Both the position numbers and the translations under genes were made by a program. Below the pieces are notes generated by a model. The model searched no databases. It was not told the origin of the DNA and saw only the letters and a program-made list of their open reading frames with translations. Shown here in pieces: positions 21,989 to 38,464 of a stretch of 64,000 nucleotides of DNA (positions are counted from its first letter, which is position 1; each line of letters opens with the position of its first letter). Source of the DNA: a virus; IMG/VR virus record IMGVR_UViG_3300020473_000021, positions 62,001 to 126,000 of that record, one strand, 5' to 3'.

Positions 21989-24900
21989 TCAACGATTCAT
22001 ATTTACGGCAGGTTTAACATCACCGTTACCGGTTGTGTTTTGCCGCTGTTTAGGTTTGTTGTCTTTTTTGTCTTTCGACTGAGACTCATCCTTCTTAGCA
22101 GCACCTGTACTATCTCTTAAGTAACTACTTATCTGAGACAGTTGATCCACCATAGTTTTCTGAACGCCAACGCTTTGATTCAGGATTGATACCATACGAT
22201 TGGTGTTCTCTGTTAACTTGGTGTTATGTACTTGGTTCTGAGCAGCAGCAGCTGCTACTGAACGTTCTTGACGTCTAGCGTCTCGATCAAGTACCTGTCT
22301 CGCTACAGCAGCTCGCTCATCCCGCTCATCGTCTACCGCAGTCGGTTTAGCATATTGACTACCATATACGCCGCGCTCTAACTCATTAGCTTTACGCAAC
22401 ATCATCTGTTTAGCACGCGGATTAGTTTGTCTCTCAGCAGCCGCACGTAATCTATCGGCAGCGCCGCGAGGGTCTAATCCACCATCAGATTCTTGGTCTC
22501 CCTCAACCCTTTGGGTGTCCCCTTGAGTATCGTTAGGTTCGTTTGGTTTAGAACCAGGAGATTCGAAATCTGCAAACAATGCTGCATCGGTTTGATAACC
22601 GTCAGCCTTCTGACCACCCAAGCGACCGAGCTCTTCTGTTTCATCCTTACCGAAGTCTGGACGACTCTTCTGAACATCAGCCTGACTTGATTGATCTTTA
22701 CGCGTTAAGAGTTCATTTAAAAACTCCCTTACTTGCGCTGAGTTATCACTTAGCTTGTAGTCTGGCCATGGTGGCGCAAAGACTGTCCATACAGACATCT
22801 GCGAACCATTAACCGCACTACGCATATTTGAAGCAACTTCATAAGGTCCTTGACCTTTAAGTGACATAGGACTATAAAACGAGCCTTTCATAGCACTCAT
22901 CTTACTCATGTATGTTGCTAACACGGGTATGAATCGTTTAGTGAACCATTCGGTCCATATCGTCCGATCTTTGTCAGACTCAGGATCACGACCAAACATG
23001 GAAGCGTATTCGTTGAATAGCTTCACACGAGACCCCTTAAACGTAGCCTTACCATTTGATATTTGCATCATTGGTTTGACGACACGTTCAAGTTCTAGTA
23101 AGTGTTGAACCTTTTCAGTTTCATCTGTCGATTGTAGGCCGTATGTAACTATACGAGTTTTACCAACAGCATCATTCACTAGACTCGCGTCTGGTAATTC
23201 AGCTACTTGACCCTCTTGGAGTTGTAACTCAATTGGACCCTCACCGTTTGCGGCAATTGCCATACCGGCTAAAGTTGTACCTTTAGAACCTTGACGTTTC
23301 TCCAACCGATTTGCAGCGTCTAACATCTTACGCTTTATTCGCGGATTATCCTGACGACTAGCGGATGCTCGCAACCGTTCGGCTGGCGTCATTGCCATGA
23401 GTTCTTCTTTGGTATGCTCAGTCTTCTCAGTCTGAGCTTCGGCTGTAGACGTATCCGTTGACTCACCCTCGCCTTCATCTTCAAGTTGTGACTCTAATAA
23501 CTCCATCACTTCATTGTAGACTCTATCGACTTGTGAGAAGCCAACGACACCACTATCTTCCTTGTATGGTGAGGTCATTTTACGATAGGGTGAATCTGGT
23601 CCATCTTCGAACTTCGACCGTTTCATCACCTCGATCTTTTCTTTAACCTCTAGCTGATCCTCCATATCCTCAACATCGAAATCTTCCATGTAAGGTTGGC
23701 CTGCTGCAATCCACGATAGATAGACTGGCTTAAAGCGATCATTCAACCACTGGTAGAACCGCTCTATCTGCTCTTCATCCTCTTCAGGATCAAGGTCGAT
23801 TTCATCCAACAGATCTTCAGGATCAACACCTTCAAGTTTAGGTGGTTGGTCTTTTGGCATGACGACGTAGTCTTGGAAAAAGTTTTCCAGCTTGTACATC
23901 ATACCAACATGCTCATCGTTCTCTAGGTCTGCACCGTATTGAGTATAACGAGCACGGTTGACATCGTCTAGATCGGCCTGATCTGCCCACTTATACAAGA
24001 AGTAAGCTCCAGCACCGATCGCAACAGCTGCACCGACTGCAAGTGCTACAGGAGCACCTAAGATGGATACTGCTGCTGTACCCAATGCCCATAGACCACG
24101 TATGGCCCAAGAGGTACCTGAGCGAATGACATTATTCCAAAGGAAACTACCAGCGGTTTTCAAACCCCCACCGATAGCATTTAGACCCAATGCCCCACCG
24201 ACTCTACTACCGACGTTCTTGACACCTTGCCAAAGTTTACCAAGTTTAGTCTTAGGCTTATTGTTCTTGTTATTGCGGTTCTTATCGCGATCCTTATCAT
24301 TATCGCCATCACCACCGACATCGACGTAGCTATAATCGTTACCATCATCGCCACCGTCTCCGCCGCCAAGACCAAATAACCCACCAAGCTTACTTAGGAT
24401 GCTATTTCCTTTATCGGCAAACTCACCTTTATCCTTACCATCTTTACCCTCGGCATCATCTTTCGATTTATCACCGTAAAGTTTAGAACGCCAACCGCCA
24501 TCGCGTAGTCCGTCATCATCTTGATCGAAGAACTTATCAGGCGGATTAACGCGCTCGTTAATCAGGTCACGGATTTCAGTAAGTAATTGAGTTTGCTGTT
24601 CTGAATCAGACAGTAGTTTCTCAGCGTTTTCACCTTTCAGTTTACCGCCGAACATTCCACCGAATAATCCACCTACAGCACCACCGATACCTTTAACAAC
24701 GCTCTTACTAGCCTTGAAGACACCTTTGGTTAACCCAACTGTCATATCTAGACCCTTACGGGTTAGGTTCATCGCATGTTGAACAAGACCATTACTTTTG
24801 CCAGTTGATAGATCCAACGGTTTCCCTCTGGAGTCAACTAAACCTTTCTTAATGTCTTCATGCGACAACACGACATTGCCATCGAGATCTAACACCTCAC

Positions 24901-27900
24901 CATCGATATCTTGGATGGTTCTAATGGGCTCCTCAGTTTCAGCCGATAGATAACCACCGGTTTTCATGATCACTGCACGGAGTCTAGGTTCTGTCTCACC
25001 TTTAACGTAAACGTCTTTAGCGGACTTCTCTTTTTCCTTACCAAATAACAAGCCTGGTAAGAAACCACCGACTTTCTTCACCGCAGTAAAAATACCGCTT
25101 TGAATAGAACGTGCAGCATTCCAATATCCACCGAATAAACCTTTAGCGCCTTTACCAAGTAATGATGCACCACCCTTTAAGAAATCAGCAATGGGTCGTG
25201 TTTCTTTTCCTGAAAGGACATACAACTTACCCTGCTCTACATCTTCGGATGTAATTACAACATCCCCATCGGAATTTATAACGGCACCATCGATATCATC
25301 GAATGAATGTATCGGATCACCAGATTCGAGGTCACTATATAACCCGCGCTTAAGGTCTCTAGCTAGGATGATGGGTTCTTCGACACCTTCAAGGTAGATA
25401 TCCGCAACCGTACTACTTCCCGATTGCTTCTCTCTTTTATTGAATAACCCACCAAGTAGATTACCCGCACCTTGTCCAGCGCCTTTGAATAGACTACCAA
25501 TACCGCTAAACGTTTTACCATAATAACCCATGAGGTTACTACCTACGCTAGCTGCACCAGAACGCAATGTATCGAAGGTCTTACCCAATACACCTCGGTT
25601 ATCTTGAGCTGCTATGGCGCGTATCAACATTTCAGTCTTAACATCCAAATGTTGTTTCAGCTCATCCAACCATGGTCTAAATGGTTCATCAGTTGCACTA
25701 TAGCGACCGCCTGACGATGGTTCACTATCACTAGGGTGTGGGAGTTCACCTGTTGGAGGCTCGTCGCCACCACCACCAAAGAAACGCGACTTCGCATTAT
25801 TCAGCAATCGATTAAACGATGCTCTAAACCGAGCAGTACCCGCAAGCTCATCTACCTTATCTGGCGATATGTCCGAATCGTCTAACTGACCAACGACCTC
25901 ATCCACCTCACCATTTGAGTTACCGAAATGCTCCGTTAGGTAAGAACGTAATTGCTCTACCTTACTACCGGCATTCTCTTTAAGGTCTGAAAATGAGTCT
26001 TGCATGGAAGCTCTAGCATCATCAAAACGACCTTTAGCTTCGTCCAGTTTAGGTTTGAACTTAGTGAACGTTTCCGATTGCTCTACGCGCTTACGTAGAT
26101 CACCATAACGAGTCGATAAGTCGTCAACCTTCGGACTGAACTTAGTGTATATATCCGAACTTTCCACACGACCTTTAATGTCATCGAAACGATCAGATAT
26201 ACCACTCACGAGATCATCTTTAACGAAACCAGCTCGACGAGCGAGTTCACGACGACCCTCTTCAGTTTGCATGTGATCGTAGATGCTTTCGCTTAAATTA
26301 ACCGCGTTTTCTTTAGCAGTATTTAGACTATCGAGAGCCTTATCCTTAGCATCTTGATATATCTCACCACGAGCATCTTTGTCAGACAAGATCTCCAATG
26401 CTTCGGAAGAGAAATCACTCAAAGCACCTAACCGTTTTTCTAACTCCTCGACGTACGGTTGGCCTTTAGCTTGTGCATCCTGATAAAGTCCTTGTATGTA
26501 AGCTTCACCATCTTCGGCTAACTTAACAACGTCGATACCGTTGTCCAATAAAAACTCATTGACATCACTCGAAACTTCATCAAACTTAGAACGCGCCTTA
26601 CCAACGTAGCCTTGCAGTTTAGATCCCTCATAACGCTCTGAGAGGTCGGCTCTTGCTTGATCCCACTTTCCCTTGGCTGAGTCGGTTAATCGACTTGCAT
26701 CGCCTTTGAGTTCGTCTAACACTGATTCAGAACTACGATAGCGACGGTAAGTACTCTCTACTTCACCGAGAGCTCTGTTTCCATACTCAGACGCCTTAGA
26801 ACGTAGACCTTCGGTCTTATCTTTAGCTTTACTGAATAGGTTTCCAGCCATAGTACCTAATTTCTCACCCATGGAACCTTCGCTATTGGGATTATAGGTA
26901 CTTTCACTAAAACCAACGTTAGGTTGTGGTTGACCAACGTCTCTATCCCAAGGCGACGTCACCATCGATTTAAATGAACCTACCGCTCTGTCCCAAGGAG
27001 AACTACCGCTAGGACCAGTCCAAGTTGGTCGATCCCAAGGGGAGCCGCCCGGTGGTGGTGTTCCGCCGCCTGATCCATCAGGTGGATCGCCATCAAAACG
27101 TTCTATAAGGAAATCGTAAATCCCTTCAATGAACGCTTTAGACTCATCCATCGTTTCCCACAGTACTTGTAGGTAAGGTTCTACCCACTGTTTAGCACTA
27201 TCCATCAGTTTGTCCCAACGTGAGACATCGACTTCAGGTTGTGGGGCGTATACAGGTTCACTGGACCCTACATCAGCGTTAGATATGTCATCTAGAACAT
27301 TGCGCTGACTACCTTGGACTTCAGTACGTACAACATTGCGATTGTCGTCTAGGTCTTTAAAGATGTCTCTTACAGTTTCAGAACGAGTTTCATGTAACCC
27401 ATCCTTACCTGTATATTCAGACAACCCAGCACGCTCAAGGACTCCAGAGCCATAGGTACTCGCACTTCTAGCAATAACCTCTTTATAGTTAGGTACACCC
27501 CGCTTAGCATCACCATACACCTTAGATGCATCCTTACGGATTTCACTAGCCTTTCTGTCTTTCTTAAACTTACCATCTTCCATGTATTGGTTGTTGATAA
27601 GTTGTGTAACTTTATCGGCTTCATCGCTTGATAACATATCGAGGTTATCAGCGTCGGCGTAATTTTCGATAGTAAACGCTTTGTTTTGGAAAACGTCTTT
27701 CTCAATCTGGTCTGCTAATTTAGCACGAGTCTCATTATCGAGTTTACCTTCACCATCTAAAAGGTCGACTACTTTGTTAACCTTTTCAGTTAGACCTCGA
27801 ACATCACCCGAATCGACAATCTTCTGACGAATGTCATCCTGTAATTGAGACTCTCTTACTACCTGTCCCTTATCGAAATCATAGACTTGTCGCTCTGCAT

Positions 27901-29350
27901 CGCTTGATCCTGTGCGGATCATTTCAGCTTCACGTAAGATTTCAGAAAGTAAGTTAGGGATAGTTTCGGTAATCGTCTTATCGGTAAGTTCCGTATACGT
28001 CGATACTTCTTCAGCTAACGTATCTGATGACATCCCGAATCGGCCTTCCTCCGTATAACGAGGAATCATGTCAGCGATACGCTCTAATAACGCCAGTTCG
28101 CCTCTCTCTCGAAAACTGACCTTCTCACCCTCTAACTCTTTACGATCGATCTCCTTACGGAGCGACTCTACTCGAGCATCGACATTACCTGCAACTGATT
28201 GGGCTGCCCTATCTGTACCGCCTTGAGCAAGATATTCAAGGTCAGAACCTACTCTAGCTAAGGTATCGTTATCCTTAGTAAAGCGACCGATAAGTTTACC
28301 GATTTTACCAGCAGCCCAATTACCACCCTCACTACCTACAAGGTTACCTGCTAGGTCTAACGGGTCAACACCATCCCCTGCCATATCCATCGTTTCGGCA
28401 GTTTCAGTAATGTTATCCGCTATCGATTGGGTAAAGTCGCTGACCTTACCTTTTATATTCTCAAATAGGTTACCAGTGAAATCTTGACTAAAGCCATATA
28501 GGCTATCGCCGATCTTACCTAGGGTTTTATCCCTAAGCATTTCACGTACCCGCTCAGAACCACGCATCTTAAGAAATTCAGGCAGGGCTGTATTCTTACG
28601 AATATCAACCAATGACTGACCTGACTCTTCAGCATATTCCTTTAATAGCGAGTATTGGTCTTTAGCGACGAAGTATTGACGGAATTGAAGTTCTAAAGAT
28701 TTCTTTTGGAACTTCGATGCAATATCTTCTTGATAACCCACGACACGACCAATAGCTTCTTGGATGTGTTCAAGCTGGCTCTTATTGTCCAGATGACGCG
28801 CATCTTCTAAAGCACGGTCGGTCTGCTTCTCCGTTTGTTCCTCTACGTCATCCTGAGCTTTCTGCTCTTGTTGCGTTTGGAATATTTCACCTAACGTCGT
28901 TTGGATTTCATTTTCTTGAGGATCATAAGCTTCACCACGACTATCGTCTGGATCTTCTTTAGTCCAACTATCAAGTTTATCATCCAACCACTTAGGGATA
29001 TAAGGAGAAGCCTTTTCTCTTACTTTTCTCCCGATCTTTTTAGCATCTTTAGCCGCAGGTCTGAGTCGATCTTTTGCGGTATCGTATAGATCCTCGGCAG
29101 CATCGGCAGCATCAGTTACGCCTTGATACGCACTACCATAACCTTTCGGTAATGCATTATCTAACAGTTTCTTTTGTGTGCTGCGACTTATTGCCGACTG
29201 CTTGATGCCGTCAGCAAACCCACGACTTGCTCGATCGACGGGCGATCGGTCGGAGGGGTCTGATTCGGGATCATCAAAATCGAGATCGGGGAGATCCAGA
29301 TCATCATCTAAATCATCATCTAGATCGAGGTCATGGTCTTCGTTAGCCAT
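21989..29350 (-). CDS. Giant tail protein, probable tape measure (2453 aa)
   Basis: The largest gene. The start is at 29350 because AAAGGAG sits 7 bp upstream; the ATG at 29377 has that site inside its frame. An acidic Asp-rich N-terminus (about 1-50) is followed by very long coiled-coil and helical regions. Two adjacent hydrophobic helices lie at about 1740-1785. A duplicated module of about 70 residues occurs at about 1316-1385 and 1444-1515 (DIYLEGVEEP... and DVYVKGETEP...). Length, helices and hydrophobic pair fit a tape measure, which sets tail length. The gene next to beta-prime in phiKZ (gp181) is a similarly giant virion protein, as I recall. I see no lysozyme or transglycosylase motif. 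Confidence 0.68.
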   Translation of the reverse strand: MANEDHDLDLDDDLDDDLDLPDLDFDDPESDPSDRSPVDRASRGFADGIKQSAISRSTQKKLLDNALPKGYGSAYQGVTDAADAAEDLYDTAKDRLRPAAKDAKKIGRKVREKASPYIPKWLDDKLDSWTKEDPDDSRGEAYDPQENEIQTTLGEIFQTQQEQKAQDDVEEQTEKQTDRALEDARHLDNKSQLEHIQEAIGRVVGYQEDIASKFQKKSLELQFRQYFVAKDQYSLLKEYAEESGQSLVDIRKNTALPEFLKMRGSERVREMLRDKTLGKIGDSLYGFSQDFTGNLFENIKGKVSDFTQSIADNITETAETMDMAGDGVDPLDLAGNLVGSEGGNWAAGKIGKLIGRFTKDNDTLARVGSDLEYLAQGGTDRAAQSVAGNVDARVESLRKEIDRKELEGEKVSFRERGELALLERIADMIPRYTEEGRFGMSSDTLAEEVSTYTELTDKTITETIPNLLSEILREAEMIRTGSSDAERQVYDFDKGQVVRESQLQDDIRQKIVDSGDVRGLTEKVNKVVDLLDGEGKLDNETRAKLADQIEKDVFQNKAFTIENYADADNLDMLSSDEADKVTQLINNQYMEDGKFKKDRKASEIRKDASKVYGDAKRGVPNYKEVIARSASTYGSGVLERAGLSEYTGKDGLHETRSETVRDIFKDLDDNRNVVRTEVQGSQRNVLDDISNADVGSSEPVYAPQPEVDVSRWDKLMDSAKQWVEPYLQVLWETMDESKAFIEGIYDFLIERFDGDPPDGSGGGTPPPGGSPWDRPTWTGPSGSSPWDRAVGSFKSMVTSPWDRDVGQPQPNVGFSESTYNPNSEGSMGEKLGTMAGNLFSKAKDKTEGLRSKASEYGNRALGEVESTYRRYRSSESVLDELKGDASRLTDSAKGKWDQARADLSERYEGSKLQGYVGKARSKFDEVSSDVNEFLLDNGIDVVKLAEDGEAYIQGLYQDAQAKGQPYVEELEKRLGALSDFSSEALEILSDKDARGEIYQDAKDKALDSLNTAKENAVNLSESIYDHMQTEEGRRELARRAGFVKDDLVSGISDRFDDIKGRVESSDIYTKFSPKVDDLSTRYGDLRKRVEQSETFTKFKPKLDEAKGRFDDARASMQDSFSDLKENAGSKVEQLRSYLTEHFGNSNGEVDEVVGQLDDSDISPDKVDELAGTARFRASFNRLLNNAKSRFFGGGGDEPPTGELPHPSDSEPSSGGRYSATDEPFRPWLDELKQHLDVKTEMLIRAIAAQDNRGVLGKTFDTLRSGAASVGSNLMGYYGKTFSGIGSLFKGAGQGAGNLLGGLFNKREKQSGSSTVADIYLEGVEEPIILARDLKRGLYSDLESGDPIHSFDDIDGAVINSDGDVVITSEDVEQGKLYVLSGKETRPIADFLKGGASLLGKGAKGLFGGYWNAARSIQSGIFTAVKKVGGFLPGLLFGKEKEKSAKDVYVKGETEPRLRAVIMKTGGYLSAETEEPIRTIQDIDGEVLDLDGNVVLSHEDIKKGLVDSRGKPLDLSTGKSNGLVQHAMNLTRKGLDMTVGLTKGVFKASKSVVKGIGGAVGGLFGGMFGGKLKGENAEKLLSDSEQQTQLLTEIRDLINERVNPPDKFFDQDDDGLRDGGWRSKLYGDKSKDDAEGKDGKDKGEFADKGNSILSKLGGLFGLGGGDGGDDGNDYSYVDVGGDGDNDKDRDKNRNNKNNKPKTKLGKLWQGVKNVGSRVGGALGLNAIGGGLKTAGSFLWNNVIRSGTSWAIRGLWALGTAAVSILGAPVALAVGAAVAIGAGAYFLYKWADQADLDDVNRARYTQYGADLENDEHVGMMYKLENFFQDYVVMPKDQPPKLEGVDPEDLLDEIDLDPEEDEEQIERFYQWLNDRFKPVYLSWIAAGQPYMEDFDVEDMEDQLEVKEKIEVMKRSKFEDGPDSPYRKMTSPYKEDSGVVGFSQVDRVYNEVMELLESQLEDEGEGESTDTSTAEAQTEKTEHTKEELMAMTPAERLRASASRQDNPRIKRKMLDAANRLEKRQGSKGTTLAGMAIAANGEGPIELQLQEGQVAELPDASLVNDAVGKTRIVTYGLQSTDETEKVQHLLELERVVKPMMQISNGKATFKGSRVKLFNEYASMFGRDPESDKDRTIWTEWFTKRFIPVLATYMSKMSAMKGSFYSPMSLKGQGPYEVASNMRSAVNGSQMSVWTVFAPPWPDYKLSDNSAQVREFLNELLTRKDQSSQADVQKSRPDFGKDETEELGRLGGQKADGYQTDAALFADFESPGSKPNEPNDTQGDTQRVEGDQESDGGLDPRGAADRLRAAAERQTNPRAKQMMLRKANELERGVYGSQYAKPTAVDDERDERAAVARQVLDRDARRQERSVAAAAAQNQVHNTKLTENTNRMVSILNQSVGVQKTMVDQLSQISSYLRDSTGAAKKDESQSKDKKDNKPKQRQNTTGNGDVKPAVNMNR

Positions 29351-29382
29351 AGACGATCTCCTTTGTGAAAAATACAATTTGT

Positions 29383-29406: not shown

Positions 29407-31044
29407 ATGAGTATAGAGCGCTTACCCTTTAACATTAGTTTGTTAAAGTTAACTCCAGGACAGATACGTTTATTAAAACCGATCACGAGTTTAGATACCG
29501 TAGATGCCCCCGGTTCAAGTGACTTTCATTCTGAAGGTCTTTTTTCAACTGAAATATTTGGGCGTGTAGGTGAAGACGCACGTGATGAGACCTTCGCTTA
29601 TATACCACTTAAGACTAAGATACTTCATCCAATTGTTTATCAACGGCTTGAGCGTTTGAAGCGTCTATATGCTGGGATATTATCAGGCAAAACCTATGCG
29701 GTTTGGGATGATAAAGAAAAAGACTTTGTGCAAAGTACTGAGGTGGAAGGAAAAACTGGTTTCCACTTCTTCATGTCTAAGTGGAAAGATATTGTCTTTA
29801 AGAAAGGCGATAGTGAGATACGTAACCAACGAATCGACTTGATCAATAAGTATCGAGAGGAAGCGGTCATCAGCGACGTACTTGTTATGCCTGCTGGGTT
29901 ACGGGATGCTGAGATAGATGCTATCGGTCGAACTCAAGAAGATGAGATCAACACACACTACCGTCGATTGATTGGTATTGTAAACACCATTGGTGATGGT
30001 AATAAGAATGATGGACCCATCCTTGATAATGCTCGGTACTCACTACAGATGACGTTTAATGAAATCTACTTTACCATTGAGAAAATGTTAAGTGGTAAGA
30101 AAGGTTTCATTCAGAACAAATATGGTTCACGTCGAATCATGAATGGTACTCGTAACGTTATATCGGCGATGGAGTTGTCACCACCTGACTTAGATGAGTC
30201 TAACTTCCCTGAAGCAGACGATACAGTAGTGGGTCTATTCCAGTGTTCAAGAGGCGCACTCCCAATCACCATCAATCGTTTGATGAACAATATTCTGCAA
30301 CCGGCTTTTGGTGATGAGGAAGGTCAGGTAAAACTTATCGATCGAAAAACACTTCGTTCTGAGTTCGTTAATGTGTCTGCACAAACGTTTGACCGTTGGA
30401 CTACTACTGAGGGTTTAGAAGCAGTTATCTCATCTCAAGAAATGACTGAGGCCCGTGCTAAACCTGTGGTTGTGGAAGATCGCTATTTAGCTTTGGTGTA
30501 TAAACCTAAAGATCGTAAAGTGTTTAAGGTATTCTACGACATCGATGAGCTACCTGATGACTTTGATAAAGATGACGTATATCCAATCACATTACATGAA
30601 ATGATTTATTTGTGTAACTATAGTGGTTGGAATGATTTACGCATCCAATCAACTCGTTATCCGGTGACCGGTGAAGAGAGTTCTTATCTATCGCGTGTCT
30701 TTGTACGAACCACAGTTAAGAGTGAAGAACGTGTCGAGTTGAACTCTAACTGGGAAGATCAAGAACCCAGTAAAGAGAATACAGCTTACGTTTATCCCGT
30801 ATTCGAACCTGAGTCTTATATCGATTCTCAAATGGTTCATAGCTATCGCTTGGGTGGACTCGGTGGTGACTTCGACGGTGATACGGTATCGGGTAACATC
30901 ATTTATACAAAAGAAGCAAAAGAAGAAGTTGATAAGTATCTCAACTCAAGAGAAGCCCACGTAGATCCATCAGGGGGACTGCGTGCGTCTGCCTCGATTG
31001 ATACGATTCAGCTTGTTATGCACAATATGACTGGAGACGCGTGA
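29407..31044 (+). CDS. RNA polymerase beta-prime-like subunit, N-terminal half
   Basis: 545 aa. The catalytic magnesium motif is present as GGDFDGDTVS, with D488, D490 and D492. The N-terminus (GLFSTEIFG...YIPLKTKILHP) follows the start of RpoC ('GLFcarIFGP...HIeLasPvaHi'), but the zinc-finger cysteines are absent. The last residues (REAHVDPSGGLRASASIDTIQLVMHNMTGD) match the RpoC stretch ending 'QDvVLGLYYMTRD', so the subunit ends right there. Bridge helix and trigger loop must come from another gene not in this window. By synteny with phiKZ gp180 it belongs to the virion polymerase. GTGAGG precedes the ATG. Confidence 0.88.
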   Translation: MSIERLPFNISLLKLTPGQIRLLKPITSLDTVDAPGSSDFHSEGLFSTEIFGRVGEDARDETFAYIPLKTKILHPIVYQRLERLKRLYAGILSGKTYAVWDDKEKDFVQSTEVEGKTGFHFFMSKWKDIVFKKGDSEIRNQRIDLINKYREEAVISDVLVMPAGLRDAEIDAIGRTQEDEINTHYRRLIGIVNTIGDGNKNDGPILDNARYSLQMTFNEIYFTIEKMLSGKKGFIQNKYGSRRIMNGTRNVISAMELSPPDLDESNFPEADDTVVGLFQCSRGALPITINRLMNNILQPAFGDEEGQVKLIDRKTLRSEFVNVSAQTFDRWTTTEGLEAVISSQEMTEARAKPVVVEDRYLALVYKPKDRKVFKVFYDIDELPDDFDKDDVYPITLHEMIYLCNYSGWNDLRIQSTRYPVTGEESSYLSRVFVRTTVKSEERVELNSNWEDQEPSKENTAYVYPVFEPESYIDSQMVHSYRLGGLGGDFDGDTVSGNIIYTKEAKEEVDKYLNSREAHVDPSGGLRASASIDTIQLVMHNMTGDA

Positions 31045-34000
31045 TGGTTGTTTATCCAACTTTCTATCGCAAACACGGTATTTGGAAATCTCAGGATGTC
31101 GCTAGCCCAAGCGTTAGCGACTACTCTGAATTGGTTATGCCAAAAGAAAGTATCCTTCATTATCTTACTTTTGAAGATTCTTCTATTGGTCCAGATCCAA
31201 ATGATCCGTTCTTTGTGAATTCAGATAACCGAGTATTGGTAGAGCATGTGACTCAACATATCAAACCGATCGGTAATCCAAAACCCAATAAAGGCGTAAC
31301 AGAAGAACGCCTTAAACGCGACTACCATCGTCGTTATCGTAAGATGCGTCCACTTAACGATTTCTCTCGTTCATTGAGAGATGAGAAAACACTTATCGTT
31401 GAGAACTACGCTGGGTTAAGTGACTTGTATATTTACATGCGTTCTGTTTATGGTCTTTACTATCGCAACTACAACATTTTAAACACATTGTTTAAAGTAG
31501 TCAATGATCGTTGTAAAGATAATGAACGTCAACACTTTATTCCAGTAACGTTACCGCGTCGTTTACCTTCACTACAAATGTTGAAGAAAGCATCGGGTGA
31601 ATATTCAAAGATACCACGCGACCTACTGACTGTATTCTCACAACCACAATACTTGATGGTTCTTGAGATTTTCAAATGGTTAGGTGAAGATAGACAATAT
31701 TCTACTTTGTCAAACATCGATCCTCAGAATTATGATAAGGTTAACTTCATTTGGATGGAGTCTGGTAAGTTTGTCGTATTCAATTTGGGTAAAGTCTTAG
31801 AGGTTACCCAAAACGAAGTTGGGGAAGATGACGAAGATGTAGGATCTAGTAAACTACAGCGTCTATTCCTACGTATGCTCATTTCTTTATTTGAACTTAG
31901 AAACGCTGGTGTCAAAACAAGTGTTAATGAGGGTGAGGAAGAAAAGCCGGAGGATTCTGATGAGGTTGAGGGTGTCTCGGTTAAAGGTAAATCGGAAGCG
32001 CAGGTTGATGAGGAGAAGATTGAGAAGGATATCGAGAAGTTAAGTGAGATATCTGATCGAGAAGTTCCCGAAGAAGAATTAACCTTTGATGATATTCCAG
32101 GCGACGTTAAAGATCCGACTGACTCATTAACCCAACGCATTCAACAGTTGGCAGAAGAAGGTGGTTTATCTCCCGCTCAAGTTCGTCGTTATGAAAAGAT
32201 CATTGAGAAGACACGCAATATACCTAACCCCTATGGCGATGGTAAATTGTTAGACTTCTCTAAGATTACAGACGAAGATTTACAACTGTCAGAGGAAGAG
32301 ATAAAACTTCCCGATGTGGCTGGTGTAACCGATGAGTCAATGACCGAATCGACACTTAAAGCGTTTGATAGTAAATACCTAAATGAAGTATTGAAGAAAG
32401 ACATCGTTAATTGCGCGATGGATATTCAGCGTGCAGGTGTAACGGTTTTAGCTTACGATGTGGAAGAAGTTAAAGACGCTGCTAACGATTATCAAGTCGT
32501 CACTATGCAGTTGTCACCTGTTGATGGTGAGACGTCTACCATCCGGTTTAAGGTTCCTAATGTTAAAGAAAATGGCGAGTTCGTTTCTAACAACGTTAAG
32601 TATCGTCTACGTAAGCAGAGGGCCGATAAACCCATCCGTAAAGTTTCGCCGTCGACCGTGTCGTTAACGTCTTACTACGCTAAAGTGTTTGTTGATCGTT
32701 CTGAAAAGTCAGTGGTGAACTATCCACGCTGGATCATTAAACAGACGCTTGGTTTGTCTGAACAAGAGAATCCAGTCGTAACCGGAACTCGATTGGTTAA
32801 TTGTTTCGACAATACTGTACGACTTCCTCGCATATACACCATTATGTCTGAACGCTTCCGAGAGTTCACTGTTAATGGTCAATATCGTTTGTTTTTCGAC
32901 TACAATAAACGTACCGAAGAGTTTGGTGAAGATTTCATCAAACAACACGAGCAGGAAGGATTCGTCGTTGCGGGCGTTAGTCTAGAACGTGGTAAGGCAC
33001 CTATCTTGGTTGATGAGAATAATGTATTCTACATCAAGAAAGGCGACCAATTGGATATCCTAGGTCCTATCGAAACGATCTTGGGTCTCGATCCAAGTAA
33101 AGCACCGGTTGAGATTGCAGAGTTCCGTCTATTCTCTAAAACTATACCTGTGGCTATGGTGTTAGGTTTCCGTTTTGGTCTAAGTCGCCTCATGTCTTTG
33201 TTAGGCGTACAACCACGTCGAGTACCTGTTGGTTCTCAAGTGAACATGTCTGACAATGAGTTCGGCATTCGCTTTGCTGATGAAACTTTGGTATTGACTA
33301 AAGACGACCCTAAAGCACAACTCATCTTAGCGGGATTTAATCGTTACCATAAAACCATTGCTCGATATAACGTTGACAGTTTTGATGATCCTGAGATCTA
33401 TGAAAATGTCTTAGAGGACAATGGTCTTCGCGTTGGCTTCATTCGAGAGCTTGAGCTTGCAATGGATATGTTTGTCGATCCTATCACTCGTGACTTACTT
33501 GAGCAGATGGGTGAACCTACCGCATTGGACCGTCTTCTCATTCGTGCTTGTGAATTGTTAACGATTGATTGGCATCCAGATGAGACAGATATGGAAGCAA
33601 TGCGTATTCGTGGATACGAACGTATGGCTGGTGCTGTGTTCTCAGAAATCACGCGAGGCGTCCGGCGCTATCGTTCTCGTGGTGTAGGTAGTAAAGCTAA
33701 GATCGAGATTAACCCTGAAGCCGTATGGCAGGTCATCAACCAAGATCCTAGTATTTCTCAAGTCGAAGAATCTAACCCGATTCAAAACTTGAAAGAAAAG
33801 GAATTGGTGACTTACATGGGTACGGGTGGCCGTAGTACACGAAGTATGGTTAAACATACTCGTCGCTATCACCCATCTGACATGGGTGTAATCAGTGAGG
33901 CTACACCAGACTCAGGTGCGGTGGGTGTTAATACTTACCTGACAGCAAATCCACAGTTTGCTAACTTGCGTGGTTTAACCAACAAATATGAGTCGGGTAA

Positions 34001-35192
34001 AACGGGTGCGGCATCAATGTTGAGTACGTCTGCATTGTTAGCACCAGGTTCTGATATCGATGATCCTAAACGTGTTAACTTCGTGTCTATTCAAAATACT
34101 CACGTGGTTTCTGCTGAAGGCTATGAAACTATTCCACTGCGTACTGGCTATGAGCGGGTTATTGCGCATCGCGTTGATGATCTGTATGCATATACAGCTA
34201 AGGCAGATGGTGAGATTGTAGCGGCAGATGATGAGCACGTTAAGGTGAAATATAAAGATGGTACTGAAGTTGCTGTCGAAATAGGGACTCGTTACGGTAG
34301 TGTTACTGGAACGACTGTACCACACCAAGTACGTTCTAACGTCAAGGTGGGCGATAAAGTCAAAGAAGGTAATGTCATTACGTATAACTCTGGGTTCTTT
34401 AGTGTCGATCCACTCGATCCTAAACAAGTACTTATGAAAGGCGGTATCTTAGTTAAGACGGCCATCATGGAGCGTTCACACACGTTTGAAGATGCGTCAG
34501 TTATTTCTGAGAAACTATCTGCTCGATTAGGTACTAAAATAACTAAGGTAAGAACCGTGTTGGTTTCGTTTGACCAAAACATTCGTAACTTGGTTAAACC
34601 TGGAGATGAAGTCGACATCGATAGTCTTCTGTGTATGATCGAAGATTCATCAACAACAGACACTGACTTGTTTAGTGAGGATAGCCTCGACAGCTTGAAG
34701 TTAATGTCGTCTAATGCACCAAAGGCTAAAGTGGCTGGTAAGGTCGAAAAGATCGAAGCGTTCTATCATGGTGACATGGAAGATATGCATGAATCAGTTA
34801 AGTCTATTGCTAAACGTTCTGATCGTCAGAGAGTTAAGCGATTAAAAGCATTGGGTGAAAAGGCAACGACAGGACAAGTAGATGGTACTGTTCGCATCGA
34901 GAAAGATCCTTTAGATATCGACACCATGGCGATTAAGATTTATATCACAAAAACGTTAGGTGCTGGTATTGGCGATAAGGGCGTTCTTGGTAATCAGATG
35001 AAAACCGTCTTTAGTAGTGTCATGACAGGTACCAACCAAACTAAGTCAGGTACTGACCTTGATATGTTGTTTGGTTACATGAGTATCAACAACCGGATTG
35101 TGTTAAGTCCGGAACTCATGGGTACGACAAATACACTACTGAAACTTATGTCTAAGAAGGTTGCCGACAAATACTTCGCCACGAAAAAGTAA
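31044..35192 (+). CDS. RNA polymerase beta-like subunit lacking the C-terminal clamp
   Basis: 1382 aa, starting at ATG 31044 (TGATG overlap with the upstream stop; GGAG 7 bp before). Motifs in RpoB order: FVSNNVKYRLRKQ near 520, LAPGSDIDDPKRVNFVSIQN (for 'PFlehdDanRaLMGsNMQ') near 1005, KVGDKVKEGNVI near 1100, HTFEDASVISEKL near 1146-1158 (for 'GyNFEDAilISErl'), and GAGIGDKGVLGNQMK near 1307-1320 (for 'pGDKmaGRHGNKG'). The end (LDMLFGYMSINNRIVLSPELMG) matches 'vDivLnPLGVPSRMniGQ'. The final RpoB region is missing and appears at 13952-14620. An acidic insert occupies about 270-350. Confidence 0.88.
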   Translation: MVVYPTFYRKHGIWKSQDVASPSVSDYSELVMPKESILHYLTFEDSSIGPDPNDPFFVNSDNRVLVEHVTQHIKPIGNPKPNKGVTEERLKRDYHRRYRKMRPLNDFSRSLRDEKTLIVENYAGLSDLYIYMRSVYGLYYRNYNILNTLFKVVNDRCKDNERQHFIPVTLPRRLPSLQMLKKASGEYSKIPRDLLTVFSQPQYLMVLEIFKWLGEDRQYSTLSNIDPQNYDKVNFIWMESGKFVVFNLGKVLEVTQNEVGEDDEDVGSSKLQRLFLRMLISLFELRNAGVKTSVNEGEEEKPEDSDEVEGVSVKGKSEAQVDEEKIEKDIEKLSEISDREVPEEELTFDDIPGDVKDPTDSLTQRIQQLAEEGGLSPAQVRRYEKIIEKTRNIPNPYGDGKLLDFSKITDEDLQLSEEEIKLPDVAGVTDESMTESTLKAFDSKYLNEVLKKDIVNCAMDIQRAGVTVLAYDVEEVKDAANDYQVVTMQLSPVDGETSTIRFKVPNVKENGEFVSNNVKYRLRKQRADKPIRKVSPSTVSLTSYYAKVFVDRSEKSVVNYPRWIIKQTLGLSEQENPVVTGTRLVNCFDNTVRLPRIYTIMSERFREFTVNGQYRLFFDYNKRTEEFGEDFIKQHEQEGFVVAGVSLERGKAPILVDENNVFYIKKGDQLDILGPIETILGLDPSKAPVEIAEFRLFSKTIPVAMVLGFRFGLSRLMSLLGVQPRRVPVGSQVNMSDNEFGIRFADETLVLTKDDPKAQLILAGFNRYHKTIARYNVDSFDDPEIYENVLEDNGLRVGFIRELELAMDMFVDPITRDLLEQMGEPTALDRLLIRACELLTIDWHPDETDMEAMRIRGYERMAGAVFSEITRGVRRYRSRGVGSKAKIEINPEAVWQVINQDPSISQVEESNPIQNLKEKELVTYMGTGGRSTRSMVKHTRRYHPSDMGVISEATPDSGAVGVNTYLTANPQFANLRGLTNKYESGKTGAASMLSTSALLAPGSDIDDPKRVNFVSIQNTHVVSAEGYETIPLRTGYERVIAHRVDDLYAYTAKADGEIVAADDEHVKVKYKDGTEVAVEIGTRYGSVTGTTVPHQVRSNVKVGDKVKEGNVITYNSGFFSVDPLDPKQVLMKGGILVKTAIMERSHTFEDASVISEKLSARLGTKITKVRTVLVSFDQNIRNLVKPGDEVDIDSLLCMIEDSSTTDTDLFSEDSLDSLKLMSSNAPKAKVAGKVEKIEAFYHGDMEDMHESVKSIAKRSDRQRVKRLKALGEKATTGQVDGTVRIEKDPLDIDTMAIKIYITKTLGAGIGDKGVLGNQMKTVFSSVMTGTNQTKSGTDLDMLFGYMSINNRIVLSPELMGTTNTLLKLMSKKVADKYFATKK

Positions 35193-35274: not shown

Positions 35275-35523
35275 ATGAGTACTGAAAACAAAAATACAGT
35301 CGGGTCAGTTCCTACTGGCTCGGCGGGGGTGTCTAAGTTTGGCACCCTTACCGTCCTGTGTAACGCTACTCAGTTAGGCAGTAACGTAATTAAAAATATC
35401 GCTGGTAACGACATCGCCAGTGGTTTTGATGGAGAAGAGATTTCTCCACGTGAGCTTCACAACATTTTCTCAGCTAAGTTGTCGAGCTACGTCAACAAAG
35501 GTAAGAGTGGGGGTCAACAATAA
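35275..35523 (+). CDS. Small probable virion protein, 82 aa
   Basis: Unrecognised. The start is at 35275 (MSTENKN) because GGGGTG lies just upstream; the ATG at 35263 has no ribosome site. Gly/Ser/Thr-rich with no long helix before residue 60. TAATG overlap with the next gene indicates coupling. It sits between polymerase and head genes, so it is probably a virion or head-assembly protein. Confidence 0.6.
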   Translation: MSTENKNTVGSVPTGSAGVSKFGTLTVLCNATQLGSNVIKNIAGNDIASGFDGEEISPRELHNIFSAKLSSYVNKGKSGGQQ

Positions 35524-36965
35524 TGCTCACTAATCAAGCACTGAATGCGGTTATGTTACCCGCTGATAAACTCGAAGAATCTGGTCGGAGTCTATCTCCG
35601 ATCCCAGGTACTGAATTGGCGAAGCTGTTTGATGCTTCGATTACCGCATCGACTGCGGCGAGCATCAGTACGATGGATACTGAGATTGCCGTACAAGAAA
35701 TGATCGAAGGAAGTCAAGTAACTGATAATGGCGCAGTAACCCACGATGAGGTTATGGCGAACTCAGTTAACTTGGTTTCTAAAGTTGTATTGGCTAACCT
35801 CGACTTAGCTCGTAACCACGTTATCCCAACGACTAAGACACTCCGTGAAAAGTATCAAACTTACATGGAACGTGCTGAGTTGGATATCGCACAACCGGTT
35901 ATGGTTATTCCAAATGTCTACCATGACATCTGGTCAACAAGTGAATTGCATGGTTTGGTAACCCGTTTTGAAAACGTACCGGTTAACCAATACAGTATGC
36001 GTTTCTCACTACCGCGTGTAACTGGTGATGAACTTCGCGCCATGATGAAAACTGGCATTGGTCAGTTAGATGAAATGGTTGATGGTTGGATTGAAGACAT
36101 GCAAACTGATAAATTATTGCATGCTTACGATCGCATCTTCATCGAGGGTACACCAATCGGTAAAGTTCCTGGTGCTAACCACTTAACGGATACTGGACTT
36201 GATCGCAATGATCTATTGATCGCACACTTGATCAGTATTGGGTTTGAAGAAGAGATGCCGGATGGCGTTAACGCTGATCTATCGAGTCTGCGTGAAGCGT
36301 TGTCTAATGTACGTCGTCAAAGCGGTCGTGCCATCGTTGGTATCTTAAATCGTCGCGAGCGTGACATTCGTCAGAAGATTCTTTCTTTTGCGGTAACAAA
36401 CGTTCCTTGGGAATTCGCTACCAACAAGACTCGTGTAACCGTCCAACTGAACAATGATGTTTATATCAAGTTCCTTGAAGAAGGTGGTTCGGTAGAAACT
36501 ATTTATGGTGCGGCACTTAAAGGTGATCGTGTAGACTACAATGCGTTGCTTGAGAAGAAAGCGATGTATGAGCAGTTCTATGAGCGTCGCATTAGCTTAC
36601 ATCGCCAGGAGGTAGGTTCTAAAGTCTATATGGCTCAACAGGAAGCTGCTCGCCTTGCGATGCGTGACCTTGTTAATGAACTGGAAGAAGATCAACTACC
36701 TTATAGTCGTTCTGACTTACACGCTAAAGCACGTGAGCGTTTAGGTTGTTATGAACCTCGCTACTTTAAAGATGAAGTCTATGTACTTCGTAGTTTGGTA
36801 TGCGAAGTTCTATATTCTGACACCAACGTTAAGATGGTACTGGATGCTATGGATGCTGCTGAACAAAGCGATCCTGAGATCAGTCCACGTGAGTGTGCAT
36901 TACACGCAACAATCGATTTAATTGCTCGTTGGTTAGCAAGTCAAATCAACGTCAACTACAAATAA
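35523..36965 (+). CDS. Probable virion (head) protein, 480 aa
   Basis: Unrecognised by name. 480 aa, helical, with a conserved-looking core (VMVIPNVYHDIWSTSEL, RFSLPRVTGDELRAMMK). It lies between the polymerase genes and the prohead protease, the place phiKZ uses for gp177/gp176 virion proteins, as I recall. TAATG start overlap and GGGGGT ribosome site. Confidence 0.6.
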   Translation: MLTNQALNAVMLPADKLEESGRSLSPIPGTELAKLFDASITASTAASISTMDTEIAVQEMIEGSQVTDNGAVTHDEVMANSVNLVSKVVLANLDLARNHVIPTTKTLREKYQTYMERAELDIAQPVMVIPNVYHDIWSTSELHGLVTRFENVPVNQYSMRFSLPRVTGDELRAMMKTGIGQLDEMVDGWIEDMQTDKLLHAYDRIFIEGTPIGKVPGANHLTDTGLDRNDLLIAHLISIGFEEEMPDGVNADLSSLREALSNVRRQSGRAIVGILNRRERDIRQKILSFAVTNVPWEFATNKTRVTVQLNNDVYIKFLEEGGSVETIYGAALKGDRVDYNALLEKKAMYEQFYERRISLHRQEVGSKVYMAQQEAARLAMRDLVNELEEDQLPYSRSDLHAKARERLGCYEPRYFKDEVYVLRSLVCEVLYSDTNVKMVLDAMDAAEQSDPEISPRECALHATIDLIARWLASQINVNYK

Positions 36966-36975
36966 GGAGTAAGCG

Positions 36976-37692
36976 ATGAACTTAGATGCATACAAACGCG
37001 ATGCTTCCAAAGTTCAAGCCTATCTCAAAGAGTTGAAAGATGGTAGTGTGATTACGACGAAGGGATGTAAGATCTACATCCCGACTCGTTTTCGCGATAA
37101 GAGTCTTGCGACAATCGGTAAGGAGACCTATATTCTAGGTCTCTTTATGATCGCTGTTGAAGATAAGTATTATGCGGTTAATAATGTTAATGCAATGATC
37201 CGCATCGAACCGAGTTCCATCAATACGGTATCGATTGATAACAAAGACTATTTTGAATTTGTATTCGAACAAAACGATACGGTATTTCCATCGACCGATT
37301 TAGTTAAAGACGATACGCTTTTGTATTACATCTTTGATGAGGTCGTTAGTAAGGGTAACATTCCTGCTTACCTTAACTATTTGGACTTGGGACATCTATT
37401 TGACACCGCACAAGAGTTTGCTGGGGTTAAATTAGTTAGCACACCAACAGTCATGCATATGCTACTTTCTAAGTTAGCACGTGATCCAGGTGATCTAAAT
37501 ACTTATTTCCGACAGGTATCCAACGGCGATGATTTGGATAATGCAAAATTCTTACAACTTCGAAGCAGTACGCATGGCGCTACCAACACCACAGCCCGAA
37601 TGATGGGTAGTTACTTCTCAGATAACATCACCAGCGCTTTGGTCAACCCGGCTGGTCGAGAAGAAAACATTGAACGCATCTTAAGAAGTTAA
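36976..37692 (+). CDS. Probable virion (head) protein, 238 aa
   Basis: Unrecognised. AAGGAG precedes the ATG; 10 bp after the previous gene and 10 bp before the protease, so clearly one operon. A beta-rich first half (GCKIYIPTRFRDK, ETYILGLFMIAVEDKYYAV) is followed by helices. Possible head or internal protein by position. Confidence 0.6.
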   Translation: MNLDAYKRDASKVQAYLKELKDGSVITTKGCKIYIPTRFRDKSLATIGKETYILGLFMIAVEDKYYAVNNVNAMIRIEPSSINTVSIDNKDYFEFVFEQNDTVFPSTDLVKDDTLLYYIFDEVVSKGNIPAYLNYLDLGHLFDTAQEFAGVKLVSTPTVMHMLLSKLARDPGDLNTYFRQVSNGDDLDNAKFLQLRSSTHGATNTTARMMGSYFSDNITSALVNPAGREENIERILRS

Positions 37693-37702
37693 GGAATTTA
37701 CA

Positions 37703-38464
37703 ATGGCCGATAAAGTTACCTATGGTAATACTGTCTTAAAAGGCATTAATAAGGCAGGCAATTTAAAACCTGATGAGAACGGTTACTATACTGTTGTATT
37801 GGGCGCTATCGGTGTTATGAACTCTGGGGGTGAATGTTACCCAGATACTGAAAAGGCTCGTAACACGTTTAACCGTAGCAGCAGCTTACTACGTCGGATT
37901 AACCAAGGATTACTTCGTGGTGAATATGCTCACCCAGATCCTGCTGGTTATCCCAACATGATCGCCTTTGAACGTCGTGTTCGTCAAATCAAAGAAGACC
38001 GCATCTGCATGCACATTGCCGATGTTTGGTTGGAAGAGATTGAACATGAGGGTAAGAAACTTACTGGTATCCTAGGACGCATTCGTCCGACCGGTCCTTA
38101 TGGTAAGGTTCTTAAAGAAATGTTAGACAACCCTGAAGAGAACGTTACTTTCTCTGGGCGTTACTACAGTGATGTCTACATGAAGAACGGTGTGCGCCAT
38201 CGTGAGATTCATACGGTAGGTACTTGGGACTTTGTTTCTGAACCTGGCGTAGCAGCATCACAGAAGTATTGTTCACCGACACTTGAGTCAGCTGACGATA
38301 CAGTCTTCTACCGCACTCAGTTAGAAGGTGCTGTTGTTGCTGAAGAAAACGATAAAGAGATGGCCATGAGTATGGAGTCATCTGGCATCACAGCTCAAAC
38401 ACTAGTTGAAGAACTTGGTTTTAGTCGTAAGACTAAAGGTAGTCGCGCTTCTTTAGACTGGTAA
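37703..38464 (+). CDS. Prohead protease (T4 gp21-like, S80-type)
   Basis: 253 aa. Residues 69-80 (GLLRGEYAHPDP) match the 'GllGEldHP' His motif with H77, and 150-153 (FSGR) the 'SsR' motif with S151. Between them lie VWLEEIEHEGKKLTGILGRI and GPYGKVLKEML, which correspond to the family's 'G.l.I..TP.Gk.lk.ll'. These enzymes cleave scaffold and head proteins during capsid maturation. It closes the head operon and is followed by a hairpin. phiKZ gp175 occupies the same place. Confidence 0.78.
   Translation: MADKVTYGNTVLKGINKAGNLKPDENGYYTVVLGAIGVMNSGGECYPDTEKARNTFNRSSSLLRRINQGLLRGEYAHPDPAGYPNMIAFERRVRQIKEDRICMHIADVWLEEIEHEGKKLTGILGRIRPTGPYGKVLKEMLDNPEENVTFSGRYYSDVYMKNGVRHREIHTVGTWDFVSEPGVAASQKYCSPTLESADDTVFYRTQLEGAVVAEENDKEMAMSMESSGITAQTLVEELGFSRKTKGSRASLDW

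What the first reader, a model, noticed from the sequence alone, without database searches (positions are those of the whole stretch)
29407..35192. Polymerase cut in an unusual way: beta-prime ends just past DFDGD, beta runs almost full length
Beta-prime stops at the residue equivalent of RpoC 'YYMTRD', leaving out bridge helix and trigger loop. Beta is one 1382-aa chain through the GDK motif with an acidic insert. The zinc-finger cysteines of RpoC are absent. The remaining beta-prime half must be encoded outside this window.
Basis: partly seen in the sequence, partly recalled or inferred. Interest (0 to 1): 0.6.

Follow-up and report, generated by a model that had tools for sequence, protein, structure and literature searches.

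The report
Ordinary phiKZ-type split virion RNA polymerase

Summary
The sequence reading is largely right; the claim of an unusual cut is not. The 545-aa beta' ends 58 residues from the start of DFDGD, at the equivalent of E. coli RpoC YYMTRD (511-516). Beta (1382 aa) ends 73 residues from the start of GDKGV. Both match phiKZ-type virion RNA polymerase end to end, with ends within about 4 residues; across 53 related loci the beta' tail has a median of 59 residues. phiKZ gp180 looks shorter in GenBank (490 aa) only because a group I intron interrupts its DFDGD codons. The published enzyme has five chains. Four are in this window: beta'N (29407-31044), betaN (31044-35192), betaC (13952-14620, phiKZ gp149 homologue) and the beta'C candidate (36976-37692, phiKZ gp176/SPN3US gp244 family). 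Only beta'M (phiKZ gp80; bridge helix and start of the trigger loop) is missing. The 133.6-kb record is a fragment; in its nearest large relative beta'M lies outside the shared stretch, and all 13 tested relatives over 200 kb have it. The acidic insert and missing zinc-finger cysteines are family traits. Verdict: new member of a known kind, low interest.

The parts
29407..31044 (+). vRNAP beta'N subunit (phiKZ gp180 / SPN3US gp240 type), 545 aa
   Evidence: phrog_2986 E=1.2e-201; 42-45% identity over the whole chain to phage homologues; AlphaFold2 model matches AR9 nvRNAP beta'N, E=8.9e-20
30868..30882 (+). codons of the catalytic DFDGD motif, beta' residues 488-492
   Evidence: aligned with phage homologues
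31044..35192 (+). vRNAP betaN subunit (phiKZ gp178 / SPN3US gp241 type), 1382 aa; start overlaps the beta'N stop (TGATG)
   Evidence: phrog_3148 E=0 over residues 2-1379; 37% identity to phiKZ gp178 over residues 8-1378; RpoB match
31827..32144 (+). variable acidic stretch of betaN (residues 262-367), present and longer in all eight compared relatives
34971..34985 (+). codons of GDKGV (betaN residues 1310-1314), 73 residues from motif start to chain end
   Evidence: 38% identity to phiKZ gp149, E=1.4e-44; phrog_3233 E=2.8e-75; colinear with RpoB 1161-1310, weak by sequence (E=0.0088)
   Evidence: phrog_2926 E=1.5e-82, the family of phiKZ gp176; gp244 is named as homologue of gp176 and as beta'C in PMC5105663; own sequence and fold tests not significant
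35523..36965 (+). phiKZ gp177-type gene between betaN and beta'C, shared gene order
   Evidence: phrog_3841 E=1e-58
37703..38464 (+). head maturation protease (phiKZ gp175 type), shared gene order
   Evidence: phrog_3014 E=2.8e-67

Best explanation
These are the beta'N and betaN subunits of a phiKZ-type virion RNA polymerase. The enzyme consists of five chains: beta'N with the DFDGD catalytic barrel, beta'M with the bridge helix and the start of the trigger loop, beta'C, betaN and betaC. By analogy with SPN3US and phiKZ it assembles in the producing cell, is packaged in the head, is ejected with the DNA and transcribes early genes. Four of the five subunit genes are in this window; beta'M most likely lies in the part of the genome that this fragmentary record does not cover. 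Shown here: homology, synteny and split points. Inferred from studied relatives: packaging, ejection and early transcription.
For: Family matches of both chains; end-to-end alignment and equal split points with phiKZ-type phages; betaC in the window; beta'C-family gene in the window next to the protease, as in phiKZ; beta'M in 13 of 13 relatives over 200 kb and outside the syntenic stretch of the nearest one; beta'N model matches AR9 nvRNAP beta'N and cyanobacterial split beta'; published five-chain model (PMC7598289, PMC5105663, PMC5694885).
Against: beta'M itself was not found in this record. The beta'C identity rests on the gp176/gp244 family and published genetics; hhalign to RpoC, PDB profile search and fold search were not significant. 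No expression or virion data exist for this phage.
Confidence: 0.96

Rival explanations
1. The split is a new, lineage-specific architecture: beta' cut at a novel point and beta fused into one nearly full chain.
For: The deposited phiKZ gp180 is only 490 aa and ends before the last four residues of DFDGD, which looks different at first sight.
Against: The phiKZ record is short because of a group I intron; its second exon continues FDGDTVSFN..PKQRD. The intron-less SL2 ortholog is 550 aa. Tail length from DxDGD has median 59 in 53 loci against 58 here. phiKZ gp178 is equally one chain of 1451 aa.
Confidence: 0.01
2. The genes belong to the non-virion RNAP (phiKZ gp55/gp74/gp71-73/gp123 type), made early in infection and not packaged.
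For: The beta' split site is shared by vRNAP and nvRNAP (PMC7598289); best PDB match is the AR9 nvRNAP beta'N, the only group of phage nvRNAPs that phmmer found there.
Against: Family scores separate the two clearly: 671.6 bits to phrog_2986 (phiKZ gp180) against 20.4 to phrog_2987; betaN matches phrog_3148 (gp178) over its whole length. Gene order is that of the phiKZ head-gene region gp181-gp175.
Confidence: 0.01
3. This phage has truly lost beta'M and uses an incomplete or host-complemented polymerase.
For: No gp80 homologue and no phrog_2962 match in the 133.6-kb record.
Against: The record is a fragment. It is colinear with 22-159 kb of its 222-kb relative G005, whose gp80 homologue lies at 203-204 kb; 13 of 13 relatives over 200 kb carry it.
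Confidence: 0.02

Closest known systems
phiKZ virion RNAP (gp180, gp178, gp149, gp80, gp176)
   Same: Same chain boundaries for beta'N and betaN; same order tail gene / gp180 / gp178 / gp177 / gp176 / protease gp175; betaC homologue present
   Different: 37-42% identity; no group I intron in beta'N here; shorter acidic stretch in betaN (106 against 167 residues); beta'M not covered by this record
SPN3US virion RNAP (gp240, gp241, gp218, gp42, gp244)
   Same: Five-chain plan established by mass spectrometry and amber mutants; lengths 519, 1401, 222, 431, 240 aa (PMC5105663) against 545, 1382, 222, not found, 238 here
   Different: No virion data for this phage; beta'M not found in the fragment
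AR9 non-virion RNAP beta'N (PDB 7s00/7s01)
   Same: beta' split after the DFDGD barrel; best structural match
   Different: Non-virion enzyme with betaN and betaC split elsewhere (PMC7598289); only about 16% identity in the structural alignment
Cyanobacterial RNAP split beta' (gamma subunit)
   Same: beta' cut at the corresponding place (PMC7598289); next-ranked group in the fold search
   Different: Cellular enzyme with alpha and omega subunits; beta is one whole chain

Membership tests
phiKZ-type virion RNAP | beta'N chain with DFDGD that ends after the double-psi barrel | tested here: met
phiKZ-type virion RNAP | betaN chain of about 1400-1500 aa ending about 70 residues after GDK | tested here: met
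phiKZ-type virion RNAP | separate betaC chain of about 222 aa | tested here: met
   window 13952-14620
phiKZ-type virion RNAP | beta'C chain of the gp176/gp244 family | tested here: met
   window 36976-37692, phrog_2926; that this family is beta'C is from the literature, own tests not significant
phiKZ-type virion RNAP | beta'M chain of the gp80/gp42 family | tested here: inconclusive
   not in the 133.6-kb fragment; expected outside it by synteny
phiKZ-type virion RNAP | presence of the subunits in virions | not testable with these tools
   needs mass spectrometry
phiKZ-type non-virion RNAP | best match to nvRNAP families | tested here: not met
   beta'N 20.4 bits to phrog_2987 against 671.6 to phrog_2986; betaN best match phrog_3148

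The most novel reading that the evidence does not exclude
The phage has no separate gp80-type beta'M chain and completes its virion polymerase with a differently cut or host-derived bridge-helix and trigger-loop part.
Probability: 0.02. Interest if true: 0.6.

Novelty: new member of a known kind. Interest (0 to 1): 0.08.

Why it matters
It adds one more divergent member to the phiKZ-type virion polymerases and shows that their split points stay fixed at 37-47% identity. Practical value: all subunits can be named in such contigs, including betaC and beta'C, which carry generic names elsewhere. It also warns that the deposited phiKZ gp180 is cut short by an intron and should not be used as a yardstick for split points.

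Tried and rejected
Pfam gave no match for beta'N and only a sub-threshold Rpb2 domain 3 for betaN. Searching the record for PF04998, phrog_2962, phrog_3015 and phiKZ gp80 found nothing; I read this as truncation, not loss, because of the synteny. phiKZ gp81 and gp79, neighbours of gp80, were considered as the missing end of beta' and dropped: no RNAP match, and the literature assigns gp176/gp244. Direct evidence that 36976-37692 resembles the RpoC C terminus was sought by hhalign against RpoC and phiKZ gp74, PDB profile search, and AlphaFold2 plus Foldseek; none was significant, and the last 40 residues were modelled with low confidence.

Full report
WHAT WAS CLAIMED. It stated that coincidence with the phiKZ split points would make the arrangement ordinary.

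The ORFs are at 29407-31044 (545 aa) and 31041/31044-35192 (1382 aa from the ATG) on the + strand. They overlap in TGATG. DFDGD is at beta' residues 488-492 and GDKGV begins at beta residue 1310. The chain end '..LVMHNMTGDA' corresponds to E. coli RpoC 'LGLYYMTRD'; DFDGD is at RpoC 460 and YYMTRD at 511. No CxC or CxxC zinc-finger motif is present, here or in nine relatives.

THE ARRANGEMENT IS THE phiKZ ONE. beta' matches phrog_2986 and beta matches phrog_3148 almost end to end; phiKZ gp180 and gp178 fall in the same two families. tblastn finds each chain in 295 phage records, including phiKZ, phiPA3, Noxifer and Erwinia, Klebsiella and Vibrio phages. In the alignment beta'N ends within a few residues of all homologues with complete chains; SL2 is 4 residues longer. 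From DxDGD to the stop the window has 58 residues; over 53 other measurable loci and phages the median is 59. Outliers are a truncated contig end (L064, 44), L097 (69) and one extended chain (L095, 180). From GDK to the end of beta the window has 73 residues; the median of 36 is 71, with a few values distorted by later GDK triplets. The motif pattern in that script skipped many intact loci whose flanking residues differ, so 53 is an undercount, not a count of losses.

WHY phiKZ CAN LOOK DIFFERENT. In GenBank PHIKZ180 is 490 aa and ends at 'LGAD'. The missing end, FDGDTVSFNAVYSEEA..PKQRD, is encoded between gp179 and gp178, behind a group I intron (Rfam RF00028, 92 bits) that sits inside the DFDGD codons. 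The intron-less ortholog in SL2 is 550 aa. LucasX, L050, L087 and L092 have group I introns at or near the same place. Comparing with the deposited phiKZ protein would therefore suggest a false difference.

THE OTHER SUBUNITS. The literature describes five vRNAP chains: N-, Mid- and C-beta', N- and C-beta (PMC7598289; PMC5105663; PMC5694885). betaC is in the window at 13952-14620: 38% identical to phiKZ gp149, phrog_3233 E=2.8e-75. The beta'C candidate is in the window at 36976-37692: phrog_2926, the family of phiKZ gp176, which PMC5105663 names as homologue of SPN3US gp244. beta'M (gp80, phrog_2962) is not in the record. The gp80 family aligns with RpoC 758-936, which covers the bridge helix and the first part of the trigger loop (positions of these elements from general knowledge). 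13 of 15 relative records have it; the two without are 40-kb and 170-kb fragments. All 16 records tested have betaC. The present record is colinear with about 22-159 kb of its 222-kb relative G005, in which gp80 lies at 203-204 kb. Its absence is therefore what truncation predicts.

STRUCTURE. An AlphaFold2 model of beta'N from 40 sequences (mean pLDDT 82) matches AR9 nvRNAP beta'N first (E=8.9e-20), then the split beta' of cyanobacteria. Global TM-scores are low (about 0.3-0.4), as may be expected for a multi-domain chain modelled without its partners. The beta'C model gives no significant PDB match and hhalign to RpoC is not significant; its identity as beta'C therefore rests on the published work, whose authors also called the sequence match alone too weak.

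ACIDIC INSERT. It is beta residues 262-367, within the N-terminal part that the SPN3US authors describe as lacking homology to prokaryotic beta and propose to target the enzyme to the head (PMC5105663). The same stretch is acidic in all eight compared relatives (20-33% D+E) and is shorter here than in any of them.

HOW IT WORKS. Shown here: homology, split points, gene order and presence of four subunit families. Inferred from phiKZ and SPN3US: assembly before packaging, packaging in the head, ejection with the DNA and transcription of early genes.

VERDICT. A good reading of raw sequence, but an ordinary feature: a new member of the phiKZ-type virion RNAP family.

Noticed in passing
L001:36159-37790 (phiKZ NC_004629, between gp178 and gp180): PHIKZ180 is deposited as 490 aa ending at 'LGAD'; a group I intron splits the DFDGD codons and the second exon (FDGDTVSFN..PKQRD) is not annotated. 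Introns are marked in Fig. 7 of PMC5105663.
   Followed up: yes
L015:4936-5274, L050:8477-8788, L087:8447-8775, L092:8465-8801: Group I introns at or near the same catalytic-motif site of beta'N in other phages; further introns lie within or near the beta gene in L021, L076, L080, L087 and L095.
   Followed up: partly
L095:6935-8983: A beta'N of 682 aa that continues about 120 residues past the usual split point with sequence of unknown nature.
   Followed up: no
window 21989-29377 (-): A 2462-aa protein of the phiKZ gp181 family (phrog_3201) whose best-matching stretch covers only residues 5-672 of the protein.
   Followed up: no
L005/L023 (IMGVR_UViG_3300020383_000007): Another IMG/VR contig (95 kb) encodes an identical beta'N; it too lacks a phrog_2962 match.
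   Followed up: partly
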